From Pyrococcus horikoshii OT3 (GTDB lineage Archaea; Methanobacteriota_B; Thermococci; Thermococcales; Thermococcaceae), in contig NC_000961.1 in the NCBI RefSeq assembly GCF_000011105.1, positions 124,001 to 188,000 of the forward strand: a DNA stretch of 64,000 nt, given 5' to 3'. Positions 26,418-46,437 of this stretch are shown here, one piece after another (position 1 is the first letter of the stretch; each line of letters starts with the position of its first letter). The position numbers were made by a program, and so were the translations under genes. The notes under the pieces were generated by a model. That model made no database searches. It was not told the DNA's origin and worked only from the letters and a program-made list of their open reading frames with translations.

Positions 26418-28173
26418 GTTTCCGTAGAACTTAGTAGTGTGGAAAGTAGAGCTCGAAGTAGACTTTAACCCCAGCGGTTCCACTGTTTCCGTAGAACTTA
26501 GTAGTGTGGAAAGAGGTCTGGCTCCTCATCCTCAGGAGGCTTCTTAAATGGGTTTCCGTAGAACTTAGTAGTGTGGAAAGGACTTGAAGAAGGATGTAAT
26601 AACATATGATGACTTCATAGAAGGTTTCCGTAGAACTTAGTAGTGTGGAAAGACTAAGTTGCTAACTAGAGTATTGCTCATCCAAGAATCATACTTCAAG
26701 TTTCCGTAGAACTTAGTAGTGTGGAAAGTATCTGAAGCACTATTGCCAACAAATTCTGGAACAATCCGTTTCCGTAGAACTTAGTAGTGTGGAAAGTTGA
26801 TGACCTTGCCCATTTAGAGTATGACCCAGAAACTGTTTCCGTAGAACTTAGTAGTGTGGAAAGCTGATTTATACGGGTTCTCTGGTTTTTCTACCTCAAG
26901 TTTCCGTAGAACTTAGTAGTGTGGAAAGACTTTCACGAAGACATCAGGGTTTCTCCGATTCCCTCTGTTTCCGTAGAACTTAGTAGTGTGGAAAGACGTC
27001 AATTCCATAGCCCAAATTCTCAGCTACGTCGAATTCAGTTTCCGTAGAACTTAGTAGTGTGGAAAGGGCGTGGAAACATCCCAGCGAACGGTTACGACGA
27101 CATAACGTTTCCGTAGAACTTAGTAGTGTGGAAAGAGCGTCCAGCCACTTGCTGGAACATTTATTGTTTCTAGCTCGGTTTCCGTAGAACTTAGTAGTGT
27201 GGAAAGACAGTCGTATACAATCCTTGCAGACATGTGCCCGCAGATGAACTTTCCAGTTTCCGTAGAACTTAGTAGTGTGGAAAGCATAAAATCTAATAAG
27301 GATATCTGTAGACATCAAGCGAGTTTCCGTAGAACTTAGTAGTGTGGAAAGTCAACCTTGTCATCAGCAACCGTGTAGGTTATTGTGTACTTTGGGGTTT
27401 CCGTTTCCGTAGAACTTAGTAGTGTGGAAAGAAACTGTCGAGGCCTGCGTTTTGCAGGAACAACCCAAGTTTCCGTAGAACTTAGTAGTGTGGAAAGATA
27501 GTAGCATTACTACGACATACTCTGGGCTCTCTGAATGTTTCCGTAGAACTTAGTAGTGTGGAAAGCTCAGCTCTTCTGGGGTTATGACGCCTCCCTCTAT
27601 AGGTTTCCGTAGAACTTAGTAGTGTGGAAAGAAGAAGGGTAGGAGGAAGAGGAGAGAGGAGTTCTTTGGCTGGGTTTCCGTAGAACTTAGTAGTGTGGAA
27701 AGATTAATCCCGTGTTGTCAAGTACTGCGATGCGGAAGTCTGTTTCCGTAGAACTTAGTAGTGTGGAAAGTGTAATGGTTATTTTTCCTCCAAACTCCGT
27801 ACCAAACTTGTTTCCGTAGAACTAAATAGTGTGGAAAGTTCTTTAGGCTCTGATAATCTCTTTCTCTCTTAAATGGTTTCCGTAGAACTAAATAGTGTGG
27901 AAAGACTTCGCCAATTGCCGACGCCCTTTCCGACACTTGCCTGTTTCCGTAGAACTCAGTAGTGTGGAAAGACCTCTGGGGTATGACTTGCCACAACAAC
28001 ACCACCTCCGTTTCCGTAGAACTTAGTAGTGTGGAAAGAGAACCAGTAGCCTGTTAATGAGCGGTGCTGGCAGCTGGGTTTCCGTAGAACTTAGTAGTGT
28101 GGAAAGCCAAACTCTTCCTTGTTTTCAAGCTCCTTCTCAATGGTGTTTCCGTAGAACTAAATAGTGCCTAAAT
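26418..28173 (+). CRISPR. CRISPR array: 26 repeats of 29 bp, 25 spacers
   Basis: The repeat starts GTTTCCGTAGAACTTAGTAG and ends TGTGGAAAG. Repeat starts: 26418, 26485, 26552, 26624, 26700, 26768, 26835, 26900, 26967, 27038, 27107, 27178, 27256, 27323, 27403, 27469, 27537, 27603, 27674, 27742, 27810, 27876, 27943, 28010, 28078 and 28145. Spacers are 36-51 bp, mostly 37-43. Repeats 21, 22 and 26 carry AACTAAATAG instead of AACTTAGTAG, and repeat 23 has AACTCAGTAG. The last repeat matches for 22 bases and then diverges, marking the trailer end. Cas6 from the same locus should process the transcript, leaving a repeat-derived 5' tag. Confidence 0.99.
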
Positions 28174-38503: not shown

Positions 38504-38594
38504 GTTCTCGTTAATTTTTTAATTACTACTTTTAATTGTAAGCAAAATCCGTATAGAAAAAGTTAATATAATTCCTGAGTAATTTCCTATTTTG

Positions 38595-39527
38595 GTGAAC
38601 TCCGTGGAGAAGACGAGGGTTATTGTTGCAGATGAGGTATCATTTGGGAGGGCTAAGATCGTTACCGTCTCCAAGCCTCCATGGACGTCAAAGTTTCACA
38701 AGGGGAAGCTTGAGAGGATAATCCTTCTAATAGGAAGGGGAAAAGGAAAATTTTCTGAGGTGGAGGGTATACCAAGGAGCATAGGGTGTCTTGGAAATAA
38801 TAGGTTAACGCTCTATCGTGAGAAATTGCCTATTTCAAAGTTTAAAGAGGTCATAGACGAATTTAGCATGCTCAATCCCAATGGCGAAGTTTACATAACA
38901 AATTATGATGACATCAAAGATGCCGTAGAACTAGCTGAGTATTCGGCCAAGAAAGGGCTTGATACGTACTTAATAGCCCTCTCCGTTGACGTTCCTAACG
39001 TTCCAAAAGATAGGAAGTTTAAACTTGTTGGGGAATACTTTTACCAGGAGCTTGATGATTCTATTGATGACGTTGATATTCTCCTGATAGTCGCCAATTA
39101 TACCCAGTACAGGAAATTACTGGATGATGGCCTAAGATTCTCGGGTGAAGTTTGGGTTGATCTACTTTACCCTGGTTCACTTAAGTTCCTCGACTTTAAC
39201 CCCATAGAGGTCAGAAAAATATTGAATCCGAGTTCTATAACTTATAGCCCCTGTATGTCCGGTTTGGTAGCAATAAGTCCAGAGGGCTTTGCGACTCCAT
39301 GTCCATTACTTAGGAAGTTTATAGTCGGCGATGTCACTAAGGAGAGTCTAAAGACGATAGTTAAAAAACAGAGACTGAGGAAGTTCTGGAAGCTTACCAA
39401 GGACAAAATAGAAACTTGCAAAAGATGTTCCTTCAGGTATATGTGCCATGATTGTAGGGCCTTAGAATATCAAGCAACGGGAGAATTATTTGGTGTAGAA
39501 TTTTGTCCACTTCTAGATGCCCTTTGA
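38595..39527 (+). CDS. SPASM-domain protein lacking the radical SAM cluster motif
   Basis: About 310 aa. The last ~95 residues look like a SPASM auxiliary-cluster domain: 'YSPCMSGLVAISPEGFATPC' then 'ETCKRCSFRYMCHDCRALEY' and 'VEFCPLLDAL', seven cysteines in the usual order. The N-terminal two thirds have barrel-like segments ('GEVYITNYDDIKDAVELAEY') but no C-x3-C-x2-C; the only cysteine there is in 'SIGCLGNN'. It is thus a radical SAM/SPASM relative that has lost the SAM-binding cluster. TATA-like 'ttaatataat' (about 38562-38571) supports a leaderless GTG start at 38595; TTG 38592 and GTG 38604 are alternatives. Function unknown. Confidence 0.7.
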   Translation: MNSVEKTRVIVADEVSFGRAKIVTVSKPPWTSKFHKGKLERIILLIGRGKGKFSEVEGIPRSIGCLGNNRLTLYREKLPISKFKEVIDEFSMLNPNGEVYITNYDDIKDAVELAEYSAKKGLDTYLIALSVDVPNVPKDRKFKLVGEYFYQELDDSIDDVDILLIVANYTQYRKLLDDGLRFSGEVWVDLLYPGSLKFLDFNPIEVRKILNPSSITYSPCMSGLVAISPEGFATPCPLLRKFIVGDVTKESLKTIVKKQRLRKFWKLTKDKIETCKRCSFRYMCHDCRALEYQATGELFGVEFCPLLDAL

Positions 39528-39618
39528 TATTTCCTGTTCTCTTTTGTTGCTCAAGCAAAATCTTTATATTTCTCTTGTCCAAACTTCAACTTGATTAAGC
39601 TTACTTGAGGTGAGGATT

Positions 39619-40365
39619 ATGGCTTACCAACCAGTTAGGAGAGTTAAAAGTGGTATTCCAGGGTTTGATGAATTGATTGAGGGAGGTTTTCCAGAAGGAA
39701 CTACCGTCCTACTCACCGGTGGAACTGGGACAGGTAAAACGACCTTTGCCGCTCAATTCATTTACAAGGGTGCCGAGGAATATGGGGAGCCAGGAGTCTT
39801 TGTAACTCTAGAAGAAAGGGCTAGAGATTTAAGAAGGGAAATGGCATCATTCGGGTGGGATTTTGAGAAGTACGAAAAGGAAGGAAAAATAGCGATTGTT
39901 GATGGTGTTAGCTCCGTAGTGGGATTACCCAGTGAGGAAAAGTTTGTCCTTGAGGATAGATTTAATGTGGATAACTTTTTGAGGTACATATACAGGGTTG
40001 TGAAGGCGATAAATGCAAAGAGATTAGTTATAGATTCGATACCTTCGATAGCTCTAAGGTTAGAAGAGGAGAGGAAAATAAGGGAAGTACTGCTTAAATT
40101 AAATACGATTCTCCTTGAAATGGGTGTTACAACGATCTTAACTACTGAAGCTCCCGATCCTCAGCATGGTAAGCTAAGTAGGTATGGAATTGAGGAGTTC
40201 ATAGCAAGGGGAGTAATTGTACTGGATCTCCAGGAAAAGAACATTGAGTTGAAGAGATACGTTTTAATAAGGAAGATGCGTGAGACGAGGCATTCTATGA
40301 AGAAGTATCCATTTGAGATAGGGCCGAATGGTATCGTCGTGTATCCGAGCGGAGAGATATACTAA
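39619..40365 (+). CDS. KaiC-like RecA-family ATPase, catalytic residues intact
   Basis: A 248-aa single KaiC domain. 'VKSGIPGFDELIEGGFPEGT' at the N-terminus, Walker A 'GGTGTGKTT' (K40, T41), catalytic Glu pair in 'FVTLEERARDLRREM' (E65, E66), Walker B Asp in 'LVIDSIPSIAL' (D139) and 'HSMKKYPFEIGPNGIVV' at the end. Archaeal KaiC homologues are signalling ATPases of mostly unknown role. ATG at 39619 follows gaggtgagg. The next gene, 12 bp on, is a second KaiC-like protein lacking several of these residues, so the two may work as a pair. Confidence 0.9.
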   Translation: MAYQPVRRVKSGIPGFDELIEGGFPEGTTVLLTGGTGTGKTTFAAQFIYKGAEEYGEPGVFVTLEERARDLRREMASFGWDFEKYEKEGKIAIVDGVSSVVGLPSEEKFVLEDRFNVDNFLRYIYRVVKAINAKRLVIDSIPSIALRLEEERKIREVLLKLNTILLEMGVTTILTTEAPDPQHGKLSRYGIEEFIARGVIVLDLQEKNIELKRYVLIRKMRETRHSMKKYPFEIGPNGIVVYPSGEIY

Positions 40366-40377
40366 GGGTGAGAGGTT

Positions 40378-41133
40378 ATGGAAGAACCCATTGAGGAAAA
40401 GATCGAAAGGACAGTTGAGAGAGTCCCGACGGGAATAATAGATGAACTAATAAATGGAGGTATTCCTAGGGGAAGCGTCGTCTTAGTTATCGGTGACCCT
40501 AAAGCTGGTAAAAGCACCTTCTTAACTCAGTTCGTTTATAATCAGATAAAACTTGGTGTACCTGTCATAGGAGTTTTGGTTGACATATCTAAATACGAGT
40601 TCATAAGCAATGCCCTAGAGTTTGGATGGGAATTCACTCCATACTTAGATGATAAAATAATCCTTTTGGATGCTTACACTCAAAGGCTTAGGAAAGCTCC
40701 AAAGTTTTCATTCGAGGAAACTATAGTTGGGGATTTGAGCAATACCGTGAACCTGCTCGATGCGATTAAGGATACTACATTAAAGATATTATCAAGCGTT
40801 AAGACTGATGGAGTTGTCGGGTTCATATCTTCAATGACGCCGATATTTTTCGAGACTTCAAAGAAAGAAATTTATAAGTTCCTGGAAGATTTAAGGGAGT
40901 TTGCCCATAGGAATAGGCAGGTTTGGGTTTTAGAGATGAATTCTGGGATTGAGGAACCATACGTTGAGACAATGGTTAAGGCCATAGTGGATGGAATAAT
41001 AGAGTTAAGGCTTGTTGAGGAAGGAAAGACCCTGAAGAGATATCTCAGAATATATGGAATGAGGAGAACAGCTCACAGATTGGATTGGATAGAGTATTCA
41101 ATAACATCTCAAGGCATTAAGCTAATCCTGTAA
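40378..41133 (+). CDS. KaiC-like protein, degenerate ATPase
   Basis: A 251-aa relative of the preceding protein: 'VPTGIIDELINGGIPRGSVV', Walker A 'GDPKAGKST' (K45, S46), and the same C-terminal order ('RTAHRLDWIEYSITSQGI'). By my alignment the catalytic Glu pair is replaced by D69-I70 ('VLVDISKYEF'), and the Walker B Asp by Ser (S151 in 'VGFISSMTP'). It can probably bind but hardly hydrolyse ATP. Tandem order and similar length suggest a regulatory partner for the active KaiC protein. Confidence 0.8.
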   Translation: MEEPIEEKIERTVERVPTGIIDELINGGIPRGSVVLVIGDPKAGKSTFLTQFVYNQIKLGVPVIGVLVDISKYEFISNALEFGWEFTPYLDDKIILLDAYTQRLRKAPKFSFEETIVGDLSNTVNLLDAIKDTTLKILSSVKTDGVVGFISSMTPIFFETSKKEIYKFLEDLREFAHRNRQVWVLEMNSGIEEPYVETMVKAIVDGIIELRLVEEGKTLKRYLRIYGMRRTAHRLDWIEYSITSQGIKLIL

Positions 41134-41200: not shown

Positions 41201-41902
41201 ATGAGGCGAGATGTTATTTACTTGCTCGCATCCTTGCTCTTCTTAATCCTCTCAAATTTTGCTTCAAACGTTGAACCAAAAAGTATCTTGGAAGCCTCAG
41301 AGGGAGATCTTGTGGAATTTTCTGGAGTTTGCGGGTACTCATCGGGAGACTTCAGCATATTAACCGATGGAAAAATTTCGATACCAGTTTATGAGGGCTT
41401 GGAGGTTGGTAAAGTTTACAAAATTGTTGGAGTCTATAGAAATGGTGGAATAAAGCCTAGAAAAATCGAGAATGGGAGTTTAGAACTTGAGATAATTCGA
41501 GGGGCATATTGGGTTGATTACTCTCCTTCGATACTTACCCCTAAAAGGGTTTACCTTAAATATGAGCTGGAGAACGTTTCTCCGGGAGATATAGTTGAGG
41601 TCAGGGGCGTGTTCTTCGGAAGTAAATTAGTTCCAGTTGAGTACAGAAAGTTAGGAAGAATTAGGGAAGCGAGAGATGGTTACCCTCTTGAAATCGAGGG
41701 TTTAGTGGTTAAAGGAGGAAATCCAGCTTATGTAATCTGGAATGACAAGAAAATAAAGGTTTACCTTAGGAACAATCAAACCTTAGTTAAGGGGGACTTC
41801 GTTAAACTAATTGGGATAGTTAGAGTTTATGGGAGCAAAATAACGATGTACGCTTACAACACTACGGTGATTAAAGATGAGGGAACTTCTAAATCTAATT
41901 GA
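41201..41902 (+). CDS. Secreted or membrane-anchored protein with OB-like beta domains
   Basis: A 233-aa protein with an N-terminal hydrophobic segment ('VIYLLASLLFLILSNFA') that is a signal anchor or signal peptide without lipobox. The rest is beta-rich with repeated OB-like phrases: 'EGDLVEFSGVCGYSSGDFSI', 'VSPGDIVEVRGVFFGSK' and 'VKGDFVKLIGIVRVYGSK'. It probably sits outside the cytoplasm. Its 3' end overlaps the next gene, a TctA-like membrane protein, by 26 bp, so they are co-expressed. No known family recognised with confidence. Confidence 0.6.
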   Translation: MRRDVIYLLASLLFLILSNFASNVEPKSILEASEGDLVEFSGVCGYSSGDFSILTDGKISIPVYEGLEVGKVYKIVGVYRNGGIKPRKIENGSLELEIIRGAYWVDYSPSILTPKRVYLKYELENVSPGDIVEVRGVFFGSKLVPVEYRKLGRIREARDGYPLEIEGLVVKGGNPAYVIWNDKKIKVYLRNNQTLVKGDFVKLIGIVRVYGSKITMYAYNTTVIKDEGTSKSN

Positions 41903-42998
41903 AGGGGTGGCCTTTGGAACCTTAACGGGATTAACTCCCGGTCTCCACGTTAATTCTCTAAGCAGATTATCCTTGCCAATTCCCGTGTTATTCGTTATGG
42001 GCCTAGTTCATACTTTCCTGGACTCAATCCCCTCCGCTTTGTTTGGTGTTCCTGAGGCCGATGATACCGTCCCTTCTCTTTTACCTTCCCATAGGATGGT
42101 TATCCAGGGGAGATTTGGAGAATTAGTTAGGCTTTCGATCTCGGCTAGTATGCTCGCTTTAATACTATCAATATTGGCTTTACCTTTGTACACTCTAGTA
42201 GCTCCCCTTTATACGTATAAGTTTGGCATCCTCTTTGTTGCCGTGCTATCCCTACTTATAATAATGTTCCAGAGGAATAAGGTGGCCGCTTTGGCGATCT
42301 TCCTACTTTCAGGATTCTTGGGATTTATAACGTTTAGGTTACCTGTGCATGATCCCTTTTACCCTCTCTTTACCGGTTTATTTGCACTTCCCCTCCTTAT
42401 TGAAGCTTACTTGAATCCTCCTAGTGAAGTTAAAATTGAAGATTCCGAGTTGAGAATTTCAAAGCTTAGGATAATAAAATTCTCGGCCTTGGGGACTTTC
42501 TTTGGAGCTTTGGCATCTTTATTACCAACCCTCACGGCTGGACAGTCTTCTCTCCTGGGCTCCAAGTTCACGGAGAATGATGAAGACTTCTTGACGATCG
42601 TATATTCAACGAATACAGCAGCTTACTCTTTTTCTCTTGTAAATTTGGCCCTAACTGGGAGAGCTAGAAATGGTGTCATGGTTGCCATAGGGGATGTATC
42701 CCTTAATGAGCTCCCCTATTTATACCTCCTGGCCCTCTCAGCGGGGATGATAGTTTTAAGCCTAGCACCCAAATTAGCCCTACTCATGGGTAAATTAGCC
42801 TTTAAAAGGTATAGACTTTCGATAATTTTAATTCTATCCTTCCTTTTCATACTTGGATACGTGTACAACGGGATAATTGGGGTAACGCTCATGCTCTCGG
42901 CGATGTTCCTTGGCTTCTTAGCTCCTATGTGGGGAGTTGCTAGGGTAACGTACATGGGTGTTCTCATGGTTCCCATTCTCGTGGAAACGATTATCTAG
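41877..42998 (+). CDS. TctA-like polytopic membrane protein (COG1784 type)
   Basis: A 373-aa protein with about ten transmembrane helices. The N-terminal 'GVAFGTLTGLTPGLHVNSLS' is the recognisable TctA-like motif of the archaeal family related to the tripartite tricarboxylate transporter's large subunit, and 'ALASLLPTLTAGQSSLLGSK' in the second half looks like its internal repeat. No TctB or TctC partners are nearby, so it may act alone or with the upstream OB-like protein. Substrate unknown. Confidence 0.75.
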   Translation: MRELLNLIEGVAFGTLTGLTPGLHVNSLSRLSLPIPVLFVMGLVHTFLDSIPSALFGVPEADDTVPSLLPSHRMVIQGRFGELVRLSISASMLALILSILALPLYTLVAPLYTYKFGILFVAVLSLLIIMFQRNKVAALAIFLLSGFLGFITFRLPVHDPFYPLFTGLFALPLLIEAYLNPPSEVKIEDSELRISKLRIIKFSALGTFFGALASLLPTLTAGQSSLLGSKFTENDEDFLTIVYSTNTAAYSFSLVNLALTGRARNGVMVAIGDVSLNELPYLYLLALSAGMIVLSLAPKLALLMGKLAFKRYRLSIILILSFLFILGYVYNGIIGVTLMLSAMFLGFLAPMWGVARVTYMGVLMVPILVETII

Positions 42999-43613: not shown

Positions 43614-44169
43614 ATATAAGCTTATTTACTATTCAAAGTTAGCCCATCTTAAGGGTCTCACTGGCTCATTTGGGGGTAATATAAGCGTCAGGGTTGGTGA
43701 ATATGTATTTATAAAAGGTACAGGCTCGGTAATGGGGGAGCTTACTCCTTCTCAAGTTTCGACCTTAACTTTGAATGGTGAAATACTCTCCTCCGTGAAA
43801 CCTTCTTCAGAGTTCAGGCTTCATCTAGGTGTCTATAGAAATAGGGCGGATGTAAGGGCCGTAGTTCACCTTCATCCACCTTACTCCATAACCCTCTCAA
43901 TTTTTGAGAAAGAGCTCCCTATGATAACTCCTGAAGCTGAGCTTTATCTCAAGAAGGTTCCAGTACTCCCATTTAAGCCCGCAGGGAGTGTGGAGCTAGC
44001 TCAACAAGTTTCCGAAGCAATGAAAGATTATGATGCCGTTATATTAGAGAGGCACGGTATTGTAACCGTTGGGAGAAGTCTTAGGGAAGCTTTCTACAGA
44101 GCGGAGCTTGTTGAGGAAGTTGCTAGACTCTGGTACCAAAAGTTTATAGCCCCAGAAAAGAAAGACTAA
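43600..44169 (+). CDS. Class II aldolase (FucA/L-fuculose-phosphate aldolase-like)
   Basis: A 189-aa protein with GTG start. 'SFGGNISVRVGEYVFIKGTG' is the N-terminal phosphate-binding region, 'SEFRLHLGVYRNRADVRAVV' with the following 'HLHPPYS' gives two of the zinc-binding His residues and E-x-R-x-H, and 'ILERHGIVTVGRSLREAFYR' gives the third His. These are the class II aldolase/adducin family's conserved residues. The sugar phosphate it cleaves is not evident. RNase P RNA begins a few bases after its stop. Confidence 0.9.
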   Translation: MRNVKYKLIYYSKLAHLKGLTGSFGGNISVRVGEYVFIKGTGSVMGELTPSQVSTLTLNGEILSSVKPSSEFRLHLGVYRNRADVRAVVHLHPPYSITLSIFEKELPMITPEAELYLKKVPVLPFKPAGSVELAQQVSEAMKDYDAVILERHGIVTVGRSLREAFYRAELVEEVARLWYQKFIAPEKKD

Positions 44170-44172
44170 AGT

Positions 44173-44499
44173 AGGCGAGGGGGCTGGGGGCCCTCGGGGT
44201 GCTCCCGAGGAAGTTCCGCCCACCGCACCGGGGCCGCGGTGCCGCAAGGCACCTCCCGAGAGGGAGGGCAACGGCACAGAAACGACACGCCCCTCGGGGG
44301 ATGTGGATGAAAGCGGTGAAGGCTCCTGGTGACGGGGGCCGAGTTAACCCGCAGACGATCCCGAGGGGATCGGTGAAACGGCCGTCCCGCGGGGTGCAAG
44401 GCCGAGTTAGGGCCGATGAGTTCCCGGTGTGAGGCCCGTGGTAGGCCGCTTAGTCGAATGCCCCCGTAGTACAGAAGGCGGGCTATAGCCCCCTCGCCT
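44173..44499 (+). ncRNA. rnpB: RNase P RNA (archaeal type A)
   Basis: A strikingly GC-rich block in an AT-rich genome. The ends pair as the P1 helix (GGCGAGGGGGCT with AGCCCCCTCGCC). Conserved core sequences are present in order: GAGGAAGTTCCGCC (CR-I), ACAGAAACGACAC (CR-II region), GCGGTGAAGG, GGTGAAACGG and, near the 3' end, GATGAGTTCCCGG with AGTACAGAAGGCGGGCTATA. This is the catalytic RNA that matures tRNA 5' ends. The exact ends are estimated to within a few bases. Frames read through it are artefacts. Confidence 0.97.
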
Positions 44500-44535
44500 A
44501 TAATCTTTATTAGGAAGTAACATCCTCCTATAAGT

Positions 44536-46437
44536 ATGCCAAGGATAAATTTCATCTTTGGAGTTCACAATCATCAACCCTTGGGGAATTTTGAATGGAT
44601 TATTAAGAGAGCGTATGAAAAAGCTTACAGACCCTTCCTGGAAACCCTTGAAGAGTATCCAAATATGAAGGTTGCGGTTCACATAAGCGGTGTTTTAGTT
44701 GAGTGGCTAGAGAGGAATAGGCCTGAATATATAGATCTGCTGAAATCCCTAATTAAGAAGGGTCAAGTTGAACTTGTGGTTGCAGGATTTTATGAGCCAA
44801 TATTGGTTGCTATACCTGAGGAGGATAGGGTTGAGCAGATTAAGCTGTCAAAGGGATGGGCAAGAAAAATGGGTTATGAAGCCAGGGGACTTTGGTTAAC
44901 TGAAAGGGTATGGGAGCCTGAACTTGTTAAGACACTGAGGGAAGCGGGTATTGAGTATGTAATCCTCGATGACTATCACTTTATGAGCGCTGGCCTCTCT
45001 AAGGAAGAGCTTTTTTGGCCCTATTACACTGAAAATGGAGGCGAAGCAATTGTTGTTTTCCCCATAGATGAGAAGCTAAGGTATTTAATCCCATTTAGAC
45101 CCGTAAACGAAACTTTAGAGTACCTCCATTCATTAGCAGATGAAGATGAGAGCAAAGTTGCTGTATTCCATGATGACGGTGAGAAATTTGGAGCGTGGCC
45201 TGGTACCCACGAATTAGTCTATGAAAGGGGATGGTTGAAGGAGTTCTTTGATAGGATATCCAGCGATGACAAGATAAACTTGATGCTCTATTCTGAGTAT
45301 CTAAGTAAATTTAGGCCAAAGGGTTTAGTTTATTTACCGATAGCTTCCTACTTTGAAATGAGTGAATGGTCGTTACCAGCAAGACAGGCAAAACTCTTCT
45401 TTGAGTTTATTAAGAAACTTAAGGAACTTAACCTCTTTGAAAAGTACAGGATATTCGTTAGGGGAGGAATCTGGAAGAATTTTCTCTACAAATATCCCGA
45501 AGGGAACTACATGCATAAGCGAATGCTAATGCTCAGTAAGCTTTTAAGGAATAATCCAACGGCCAGGATCTTTGTCCTTAGGGCCCAGTGTAACGATGCA
45601 TACTGGCATGGTGTTTTTGGTGGAATCTACCTCCCCCATATAAGGCGAGCAGTGTGGAGGAATTTAATTAAGGCCCATAGCTATTTGGAACCGGAGAATA
45701 GGGTCTTTGATTTAGATTTTGATGGTGGAGAAGAGATCATGCTAGAAAACGAGAACTTTATTTTAGTTGTAAAGCCGCATTATGGAGGAGCTATCTTCGA
45801 AATGAGCTCTAAGAAAAAGTATGTAAACTACCTCGACGTGGTGGCTAGGAGGTGGGAGCATTATCATAGTTTGAAAGATATTCCTGAAGGGATGAAGAGA
45901 GAATTAAGCTATGACAAGTGGCCAAGGGGAATGCTTCAAGATCACTTTCTCTTACCCACCGAGGTCCTCGATAATTACATGCTCTCTAAGTATAGGGAGC
46001 TTGGAGATTTCTTGATGAGTTCCTATCACTATCAGATTGAGGATAAGCTGAGATTGTGGAGATCTGGTAAAGTTAAAGGGATAAGCGTTGAGGTAGAGAA
46101 AGTACTAAGGCTTAACAAAGATGGGTTTACCACGGAGTATAGGATAGTTTCTAAGGAAGAGCTGGGCCTAATGTTTGGAGTTGAAATTAACTTGGCTGTT
46201 CAGGGCACCGTGGAGTATCCAGCTGAGTTCATGTCTAAGGAGATAGAGGTCAAAGACATCTTTGGTAAAGTGAAAATCGAGAGTGAAAAAGAGGCAAAAA
46301 TTTGGAAATTTCCAATAAAAACATTGAGCCAGAGCGAGTCAGGTTGGGATTTTGTTCAACAGGGAGTTAGCTATACCTTCCTGTATCCCATAGAGAAAAT
46401 GCTCAATATTAAATTGAAGTTCAAAGAGAGTATGTGA
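44536..46437 (+). CDS. GH57 4-alpha-glucanotransferase (amylase A type)
   Basis: A 633-aa glycoside hydrolase family 57 enzyme. The start 'INFIFGVHNHQPLGNF' is GH57 motif 1. The catalytic nucleophile E123 lies in 'GLWLTERVWEPEL' and the acid/base D214 in 'AVFHDDGEKFGAWP', the same numbering as the Thermococcus litoralis enzyme as I recall it. The C-terminal half is a beta-sandwich typical of the family. No signal peptide, so it acts inside the cell on maltodextrins or glycogen. A sugar-transport ATPase gene follows 69 bp later. Confidence 0.95.
   Translation: MPRINFIFGVHNHQPLGNFEWIIKRAYEKAYRPFLETLEEYPNMKVAVHISGVLVEWLERNRPEYIDLLKSLIKKGQVELVVAGFYEPILVAIPEEDRVEQIKLSKGWARKMGYEARGLWLTERVWEPELVKTLREAGIEYVILDDYHFMSAGLSKEELFWPYYTENGGEAIVVFPIDEKLRYLIPFRPVNETLEYLHSLADEDESKVAVFHDDGEKFGAWPGTHELVYERGWLKEFFDRISSDDKINLMLYSEYLSKFRPKGLVYLPIASYFEMSEWSLPARQAKLFFEFIKKLKELNLFEKYRIFVRGGIWKNFLYKYPEGNYMHKRMLMLSKLLRNNPTARIFVLRAQCNDAYWHGVFGGIYLPHIRRAVWRNLIKAHSYLEPENRVFDLDFDGGEEIMLENENFILVVKPHYGGAIFEMSSKKKYVNYLDVVARRWEHYHSLKDIPEGMKRELSYDKWPRGMLQDHFLLPTEVLDNYMLSKYRELGDFLMSSYHYQIEDKLRLWRSGKVKGISVEVEKVLRLNKDGFTTEYRIVSKEELGLMFGVEINLAVQGTVEYPAEFMSKEIEVKDIFGKVKIESEKEAKIWKFPIKTLSQSESGWDFVQQGVSYTFLYPIEKMLNIKLKFKESM

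What the first reader, a model, noticed from the sequence alone, without database searches (positions are those of the whole stretch)
39619..41133. Tandem KaiC-like pair: one intact ATPase, one apparent pseudo-ATPase
Seen: the first protein has Walker A, the Glu pair E65-E66 and Walker B D139. In the second, Walker A is kept but the Glu pair aligns with D69-I70 and the Walker B Asp with S151. The genes are 12 bp apart and the same length. Inference: the second is a nucleotide-binding but non-hydrolysing subunit or regulator that may form a mixed ring with the first.
Basis: partly seen in the sequence, partly recalled or inferred. Interest (0 to 1): 0.5.

Follow-up and report, generated by a model that had tools for sequence, protein, structure and literature searches.

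The report
KaiC-like ATPase with pseudo-ATPase partner
Next to a normal KaiC-like ring ATPase, this heat-loving archaeon carries a second KaiC-like protein whose ATP-cutting residues were replaced long ago by a fixed alternative set, so it probably binds ATP as a regulator instead of burning it; such proteins are already known, but this family has a firm signature and can be tested.

Summary
The window lies in a Pyrococcus horikoshii-type genome; gene 1 (39619-40365) is PH0186 (PDB 2zts) and gene 2 (40378-41133) is PH0187. Independent alignments place D69-I70 on the Glu pair and S151 on the Walker-B Asp. This is no chance defect: in 42 aligned PH0187-family proteins the Walker-A Lys is kept 42/42, the first Glu is Asp 42/42, the Walker-B Asp is Ser or Thr 42/42, the trans Lys is Gly 42/42; the trans Arg is R 37, K 4, N 1. 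dN/dS is 0.011-0.076 where computable. The family was found in 41 of 94 Thermococcales genomes and 0 of 21 others of the phylum; in 38 of 38 checked loci it directly follows an intact PH0186 gene. PH0186 is in 91 of 94, so it works without PH0187. Tandem duplication is unproven. A published two-hybrid screen reports PH0187 self-interaction and does not list PH0186-PH0187 among adjacent-gene pairs. I favour an ATP-binding, non-hydrolysing homo-oligomer that regulates the PH0186 system, as ArlH/FlaH does for the archaellum motor, over a mixed ring. Known kind (inactivated KaiC); interest moderate.

The parts
39563..39571 (+). TATA-like box (TTTATATTT) upstream of gene 1; putative promoter of the pair
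   Evidence: Sequence read and exact match; about 1.65 matches expected by chance in the window, so weak on its own
39619..40365 (+). PH0186, intact KaiC-like ATPase, 248 aa: Walker A K40-T41, E65-E66, Walker-B D139, trans K219/R221/H225
   Evidence: PF06745, 285.6 bits; PDB 2zts; in 86 PH0186 orthologues K40, E65, E66, D139, K219 and H225 are 86/86 and R221 is 85/86
40378..41133 (+). PH0187, KaiC-family pseudo-ATPase, 251 aa: Walker A G39-S46 with extra K42, D69-I70 for the Glu pair, S151 for the Walker-B Asp, G227 for the trans Lys, R229/H233 kept, W183, E186 and N188 invariant
   Evidence: (PF06745, 117.2 bits); AlphaFold2 model pLDDT 87.8, pTM 0.86
41201..41902 (+). Membrane-anchored (one TM helix) multi-OB-fold protein, short form; conserved downstream neighbour of the KaiC gene or pair
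41877..42998 (+). TctA-like multi-span membrane protein; conserved neighbour
   Evidence: PF01970, 109 bits

Best explanation
PH0187 is a Thermococcales-specific, long-maintained pseudo-ATPase of the KaiC family. Shown by sequence: it keeps the P-loop and adds a second invariant Lys (K42), but has permanently replaced the catalytic Glu pair, the Walker-B Asp and the trans Lys, while keeping the trans Arg (mostly) and His at the subunit interface. Inferred: it binds ATP at subunit interfaces and the bound nucleotide sets its oligomeric state, but it does not hydrolyse ATP by the KaiC mechanism. Inferred: it forms its own homo-oligomer (probably a hexamer) that docks on, or competes for partners of, the ring of the intact ATPase PH0186 encoded 12 bp upstream, tuning its activity by ATP occupancy, as ArlH/FlaH does for ArlI. 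The likely output, inferred only from gene order, is the membrane OB-fold/TctA-like pair encoded downstream.
For: Residue pattern fixed in 42/42 family members. Strong purifying selection: dN/dS 0.011-0.076 in the 9 of 13 compared pairs where dS could be computed. KaiC fold. Gene pair on the same strand with 1-75 bp between genes in 38/38 loci checked. PH0187 self-interacts in a two-hybrid screen (PMC1414084). A reference-list title says PH0187 was expressed and crystallised under its own name, so it probably folds alone. ArlH, a KaiC-like protein that binds but does not hydrolyse ATP, forms a hexamer and stimulates ArlI (PMC6011876, PMC8978795). OB and TctA-like genes follow the KaiC gene or pair in 27 of 31 loci with PH0187 and the OB gene in 43 of 45 without.
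Against: No biochemical data on ATP binding or hydrolysis was seen. D69 is an acid at the catalytic-base position in 42/42, so slow hydrolysis is possible. No physical PH0186-PH0187 interaction is reported in the text read (Figure 5 of PMC1414084 is not held, and whether PH0186 was among the 960 proteins assayed is unknown). PH0187 is missing from most of one genus, and a solitary family member exists, so partnership with PH0186 is not obligatory. The two-hybrid self-interaction does not say hexamer.
Confidence: 0.5

Rival explanations
1. Mixed ring: PH0187 alternates with PH0186 in one hexamer, binds ATP without hydrolysing it, and donates its trans Arg/His to the active sites of neighbouring PH0186 subunits.
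For: Gene adjacency in 38/38 loci; cis catalytic residues lost while trans Arg (37 R, 4 K, 1 N of 42) and His (42/42) are kept. In the 43-genome clade without PH0187, 5 of 10 clade-specific changes in PH0186 cluster in residues 108-119 (p about 0.003, post hoc), the segment equivalent to KaiC's KaiB-binding B-loop (recalled).
Against: Trans Lys is Gly in 42/42, so the donated site would be incomplete. Self-interaction reported, not hetero. PH0186 stands alone in 50 of 91 genomes. PH0186 in the two other PH0187-less genomes examined (G045, G046) does not share the clustered changes. Solitary copies exist.
Confidence: 0.2
2. Rebuilt active site: invariant K42, D69, S/T151, E186 and N188 form an altered but working site (slow ATPase, another nucleotide, or phosphotransfer), with K42 standing in for the missing trans Lys.
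For: K42, D69, E186 and N188 are each 42/42 while residue 70 varies; by the model's secondary structure D69 follows strand 63-67, S151 follows strand 147-150, and E186/N188 lie at the end of strand 182-188, the sensor position (position name recalled).
Against: Losing both the second Glu and the Walker-B Asp removes residues the known family needs for catalysis. Invariant residues may serve structure or interfaces.
Confidence: 0.12
3. PH0187 is an independent ATP sensor or adaptor, merely co-transcribed with PH0186.
For: Closest paralogue in its own genome by profile is PH0284 (116 bits), not PH0186 (63 bits); PH0186/PH0187 do not group in the tree; solitary copies beside HD-domain and TldD or GTP-cyclohydrolase genes in three genomes.
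Against: Adjacency kept across six genera; the AU test does not reject a PH0186+PH0187 clade (p 0.206).
Confidence: 0.13
4. Decaying pseudogene or sequencing artefact.
For: Active-site loss seen in the window alone.
Against: Intact frame, 42/42 fixed substitutions, dN/dS 0.011-0.076 where computable.
Confidence: 0.01

Closest known systems
ArlH/FlaH (archaellum KaiC-like protein)
   Same: KaiC/RecA fold, intact Walker A, Glu pair lost, binds but does not hydrolyse ATP (literature), encoded beside a ring ATPase it regulates
   Different: ArlH keeps the Walker-B Asp (own-genome FlaH, L007) and pairs with a different kind of ATPase (FlaI/ArlI); PH0187 scores 53.8 against the ArlH cut-off of 215 and has no archaellum context
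iKaiC, inactivated KaiC-like domains of archaea (PMC5847659, citing Makarova et al. 2017, which is not held)
   Same: KaiC-superfamily domain judged inactivated by sequence
   Different: In the passages read, iKaiC appears as a domain of response regulators and HalOD1 proteins; PH0187 is stand-alone, next to an intact KaiC gene, with its own invariant signature
PH0284 (PDB 2dr3) and SSO2452 (PDB 2w0m)
   Same: Best structural matches (Z 30.1 and 28.8) and, for PH0284, the best paralogue in the same genome
   Different: PH0284 keeps E-E and Walker-B Asp; residues of SSO2452 were not checked
KaiC CI/CII (circadian clock)
   Same: Fold (Z about 27) and Walker A; trans Arg and His (KaiC side recalled)
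   Different: Single domain; no Glu pair, Walker-B Asp or trans Lys; 47.9 bits against the clock-KaiC cut-off of 546.25

Membership tests
KaiC superfamily (PF06745) | Profile score above the curated cut-off | tested here: met
   117.2 bits against 26.6
KaiC superfamily (PF06745) | KaiC/RecA fold | tested here: met
   Model against 2dr3 Z 30.1, KaiC CI Z about 27, 2zts Z 26.6
Active KaiC-type ATPase | Walker A GxxxxGK[ST] | tested here: met
   K45 42/42, S or T46 42/42
Active KaiC-type ATPase | Catalytic Glu pair | tested here: not met
   First Glu is Asp in 42/42; second is I/V/M/L in 39 and E/Q/D in the 3 solitary copies
Active KaiC-type ATPase | Walker-B Asp | tested here: not met
   Ser 32, Thr 10 of 42
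Active KaiC-type ATPase | Trans Lys and Arg finger (role recalled) | tested here: not met
   Lys is Gly in 42/42; Arg is R 37, K 4, N 1; so the pair is only half kept
ArlH/FlaH | NCBIfam NF052589 curated score | tested here: not met
   53.8 against 215
ArlH/FlaH | Binds ATP, does not hydrolyse it, regulates a partner ATPase | not testable with these tools
   Needs biochemistry
Circadian KaiC | Two KaiC domains and clock-KaiC score | tested here: not met
   One domain; 47.9 against 546.25 for TIGR02655
thermo_KaiC_1 (TIGR03877) | Curated score | tested here: not met
   88.5 against 307.25
iKaiC (inactivated KaiC) | Divergent, possibly inactivated KaiC-superfamily domain | tested here: met
   Residue losses above; the defining paper was not held, so its own list was not checked
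Tandem duplicate of PH0186 | Groups with PH0186 in a tree | tested here: inconclusive
   Not sisters in the tree; AU p 0.206 does not reject it; long branches

The most novel reading that the evidence does not exclude
PH0187 founds a KaiC subfamily with a re-plumbed nucleotide site: a second P-loop Lys (K42) replaces the lost trans Lys, D69 and a new invariant Glu (E186) at the sensor strand replace the Glu pair and Walker-B Asp, and the protein performs a different nucleotide-driven step (slow timer ATPase or phosphotransfer) that sets the state of the PH0186 ring and its membrane OB/TctA-like partners.
Probability: 0.1. Interest if true: 0.6.

Novelty: new member of a known kind. Interest (0 to 1): 0.36.

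Why it matters
Archaea carry many KaiC-like proteins of unknown role. An intact and a dead KaiC-like protein kept side by side, with clean natural absence of the dead one in part of the order, give a direct test of what a non-hydrolysing KaiC subunit contributes. PH0186 is structurally solved and PH0187 has reportedly been crystallised.

Tried and rejected
Pseudogene or sequencing error: rejected. Recent tandem duplication: not supported, not excluded. Coupled change in PH0186 after loss of PH0187: a cluster in one clade, not shared by the other two PH0187-less genomes; weak. Viral copies: 10 stretches matched a pattern, none encoded a relative. Relatives elsewhere: the genome-contig scan (84,980 species, limited to two peptide patterns) gave 15 loci, 12 titled Thermococcus, Thermococci or Thermococcales and 3 distant ones with an intact Walker-B Asp. 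Function of the OB protein from its fold: only weak multi-OB matches. Not tried: complex prediction (the tool takes one chain).

Rows dropped before counts: fragments in G083 and G088 were left out of the 42-row alignment; 5 genomes with PH0186 (G061, G063, G064, G066, G068) were not used, so the tree and residue counts of PH0186 use 86 of 91. G040's second, 57% identical PH0186-like copy (L088) is in the 47-row set but not in the 86. In one search, 4 of 13 pairs gave no dN/dS for PH0187 and 3 of 13 none for PH0186 because dS was saturated.

Full report
IDENTITY. The window is G000:C1:124001-188000 of a 1,738,505-base genome. Gene 1 (39619-40365) matches PDB 2zts, 'PH0186', over its whole length. 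Gene 2 follows 12 bp later (40378-41133) and I take it to be PH0187. That name rests on the adjacent locus number plus literature naming a KaiC-like protein PH0187 of P. horikoshii OT3 (reference title seen in PMC4640596). The PDB sequence search gave no own structure of PH0187: the best hits are KaiC and PH0284.

OBSERVATION. PH0186 has Walker A with K40, E65-E66 and D139. PH0187 has Walker A with K45, D69-I70 opposite the Glu pair, and S151 opposite the Walker-B Asp. MAFFT, hhalign of both family profiles and phmmer against PH0284 agree. The lengths are 248 and 251 aa.

THE DEFECT IS A FIXED SIGNATURE. From the loci I extracted 42 PH0187-family proteins (39 tandem, 3 solitary; 40 distinct sequences) and 47 PH0186-family proteins. 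In the 42: Walker-A Lys 42; first Glu is Asp 42; second Glu is I 15, V 13, M 7, L 4, with E, Q and D once each in the three solitary copies; Walker-B Asp is Ser 32, Thr 10; trans Lys is Gly 42; trans Arg is R 37, K 4, N 1; His 42. New invariants not shared with PH0186 or PH0284 are K42 in the P-loop, W183, E186 and N188. In 86 PH0186 orthologues K40, E65, E66, D139, K219 and H225 are 86/86 and R221 is 85/86. One second, 57% identical PH0186-like copy (L088) has Asp at E65 and Cys at R221. The roles of the trans Lys and Arg as finger residues are recalled from KaiC literature.

SELECTION. dN/dS by a counting method (13 pairs) is 0.011-0.076 for PH0187 in the 9 pairs where dS was computable and 0.005-0.040 for PH0186 in its 10 computable pairs. 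PH0187 mostly evolves faster, but both are strongly constrained.

PHYLETIC PATTERN. PH0187 family: 41 of 115 phylum genomes at E<=1e-38, all 41 among the 94 Thermococcales and 0 of 21 others; within genus g3, 10 of 61. PH0186: 91 of 94; the three misses (G009, G052, G085) are 77, 73 and 61% complete. So 50 of 91 PH0186-bearing genomes show no PH0187. On a PH0186 tree of 86 genomes the presence label needs 3 changes; with PH0187 present in all six genera, I infer ancestral presence with one loss in a clade of 43 genomes and separate absences in G046 and G045 (G045 sits on a long branch). In most PH0187-less loci PH0186 is followed directly by the OB gene.

LINKAGE. In 38 of 38 loci compared, PH0187 follows PH0186 on the same strand with 1-75 bp between genes, starts chosen by my script. 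A membrane-anchored OB-fold protein and a TctA-like membrane protein follow in 27 of 31 PH0187-bearing loci (exceptions L079, a contig end, and L099, L100, L107), and the OB gene follows in 43 of 45 PH0187-less loci (exceptions L141 and L167, the latter a contig end). The OB gene also occurs away from PH0186, for example in G001, G034 and G078, so the link is strong but not absolute. One genus (g2: G001, G002, G003) has, besides the tandem copy, a solitary PH0187-like gene (44-47% identity), next to HD-domain and TldD genes (L080, L082) or a GTP-cyclohydrolase gene (L081).

ORIGIN. PH0187's nearest paralogue in its own genome by profile is PH0284 (116 bits), then PH0186 (63 bits). In a 28-sequence tree PH0186 and PH0187 families are not sisters, but forcing them together is not rejected (AU p 0.206) and long branches are present. 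'Tandem duplicate' is therefore unproven.

FOLD. AlphaFold2 on the family alignment gives pLDDT 87.8, pTM 0.86. Best matches are 2dr3 (PH0284) Z 30.1, 2w0m (SSO2452) Z 28.8, KaiC CI about 27, 2zts (PH0186) 26.6. By secondary structure D69 follows strand 63-67, S151 follows strand 147-150, and E186/N188 sit at the end of strand 182-188, the sensor position of RecA-like folds (recalled).

LITERATURE. PMC1414084 (passages and the tables section read): a mammalian two-hybrid screen of 960 P. horikoshii proteins lists PH0187 among 51 self-interactions; PH0186 does not occur in the text and the pair is not in the table of adjacent-gene interactions; Figure 5 is not held. PMC6011876 and PMC8978795 (passages): FlaH/ArlH binds but does not hydrolyse ATP and stimulates FlaI/ArlI; ArlH is called KaiC-like and adopts a hexameric form. 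PMC5847659 (passages): 'iKaiC', inactivated KaiC-like domains, credited to Makarova et al. 2017, which is not held. PMC5520375 (passages): another KaiC of this species, PH0833, shows kinase activity at 75 C. My searches returned no paper describing PH0187's active-site loss or its conservation; the crystallisation paper and Makarova 2017 could not be read and may do so. Of the five papers holding 'PH0187' I opened two; the other three have unrelated titles.

MECHANISM. Shown: intact P-loop, loss of hydrolytic residues, conserved linkage, purifying selection. From the literature: self-interaction. Inferred: ATP binding, homo-oligomer, regulation of PH0186. The retained interface Arg and His fit nucleotide sensing between PH0187 subunits as well as finger donation to PH0186; because the trans Lys is gone and PH0186 works alone in many genomes, I rank the homo-oligomer with ArlH-like regulation first (0.5), the mixed ring second (0.2), an independent sensor third (0.13) and a rebuilt active site fourth (0.12). 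A cluster of 5 of 10 clade-specific PH0186 changes in residues 108-119 in the PH0187-less clade (p about 0.003, window chosen after seeing the data) is a lead for a contact surface, but G045 and G046 do not show it.

VERDICT. Correct, careful observation; a real, conserved pseudo-ATPase family; the mixed-ring idea is unproven and less likely than a regulatory homo-oligomer. New member of a known kind, interest 0.36.

Noticed in passing
window 38592-39527 +: Protein with only the SPASM iron-sulfur domain and no radical-SAM domain hit in Pfam, so possibly a degenerate radical-SAM protein; found upstream of PH0186 in the five Pyrococcus loci L089-L093 and in no other locus.
   Followed up: partly
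window 41201-41902 +: The OB-fold protein is about 233 aa here and in two close relatives (G004, G007) but about 390 aa in most others; the C-terminal half is missing. The full form is predicted as one TM helix plus tandem small beta barrels.
   Followed up: partly
window 44175-44497 +: Archaeal RNase P RNA (211 bits); the small ORFs listed over 44044-44682 are likely spurious.
   Followed up: yes
window 26418-28106 -: CRISPR array of 29-base repeats, 25 copies matched at Rfam's gathering score.
   Followed up: no
L080 4064-4798, L081 809-1519, L082 4050-4769: A solitary, more diverged PH0187-like gene in genus g2, overlapping the end of an HD-domain or GTP-cyclohydrolase gene on the other strand.
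   Followed up: partly
PH0186 residues 108-119 (window 39940-39975): Clustered clade-specific changes in the genomes that lack PH0187; possible contact surface, not reproduced in two other PH0187-less genomes.
   Followed up: partly
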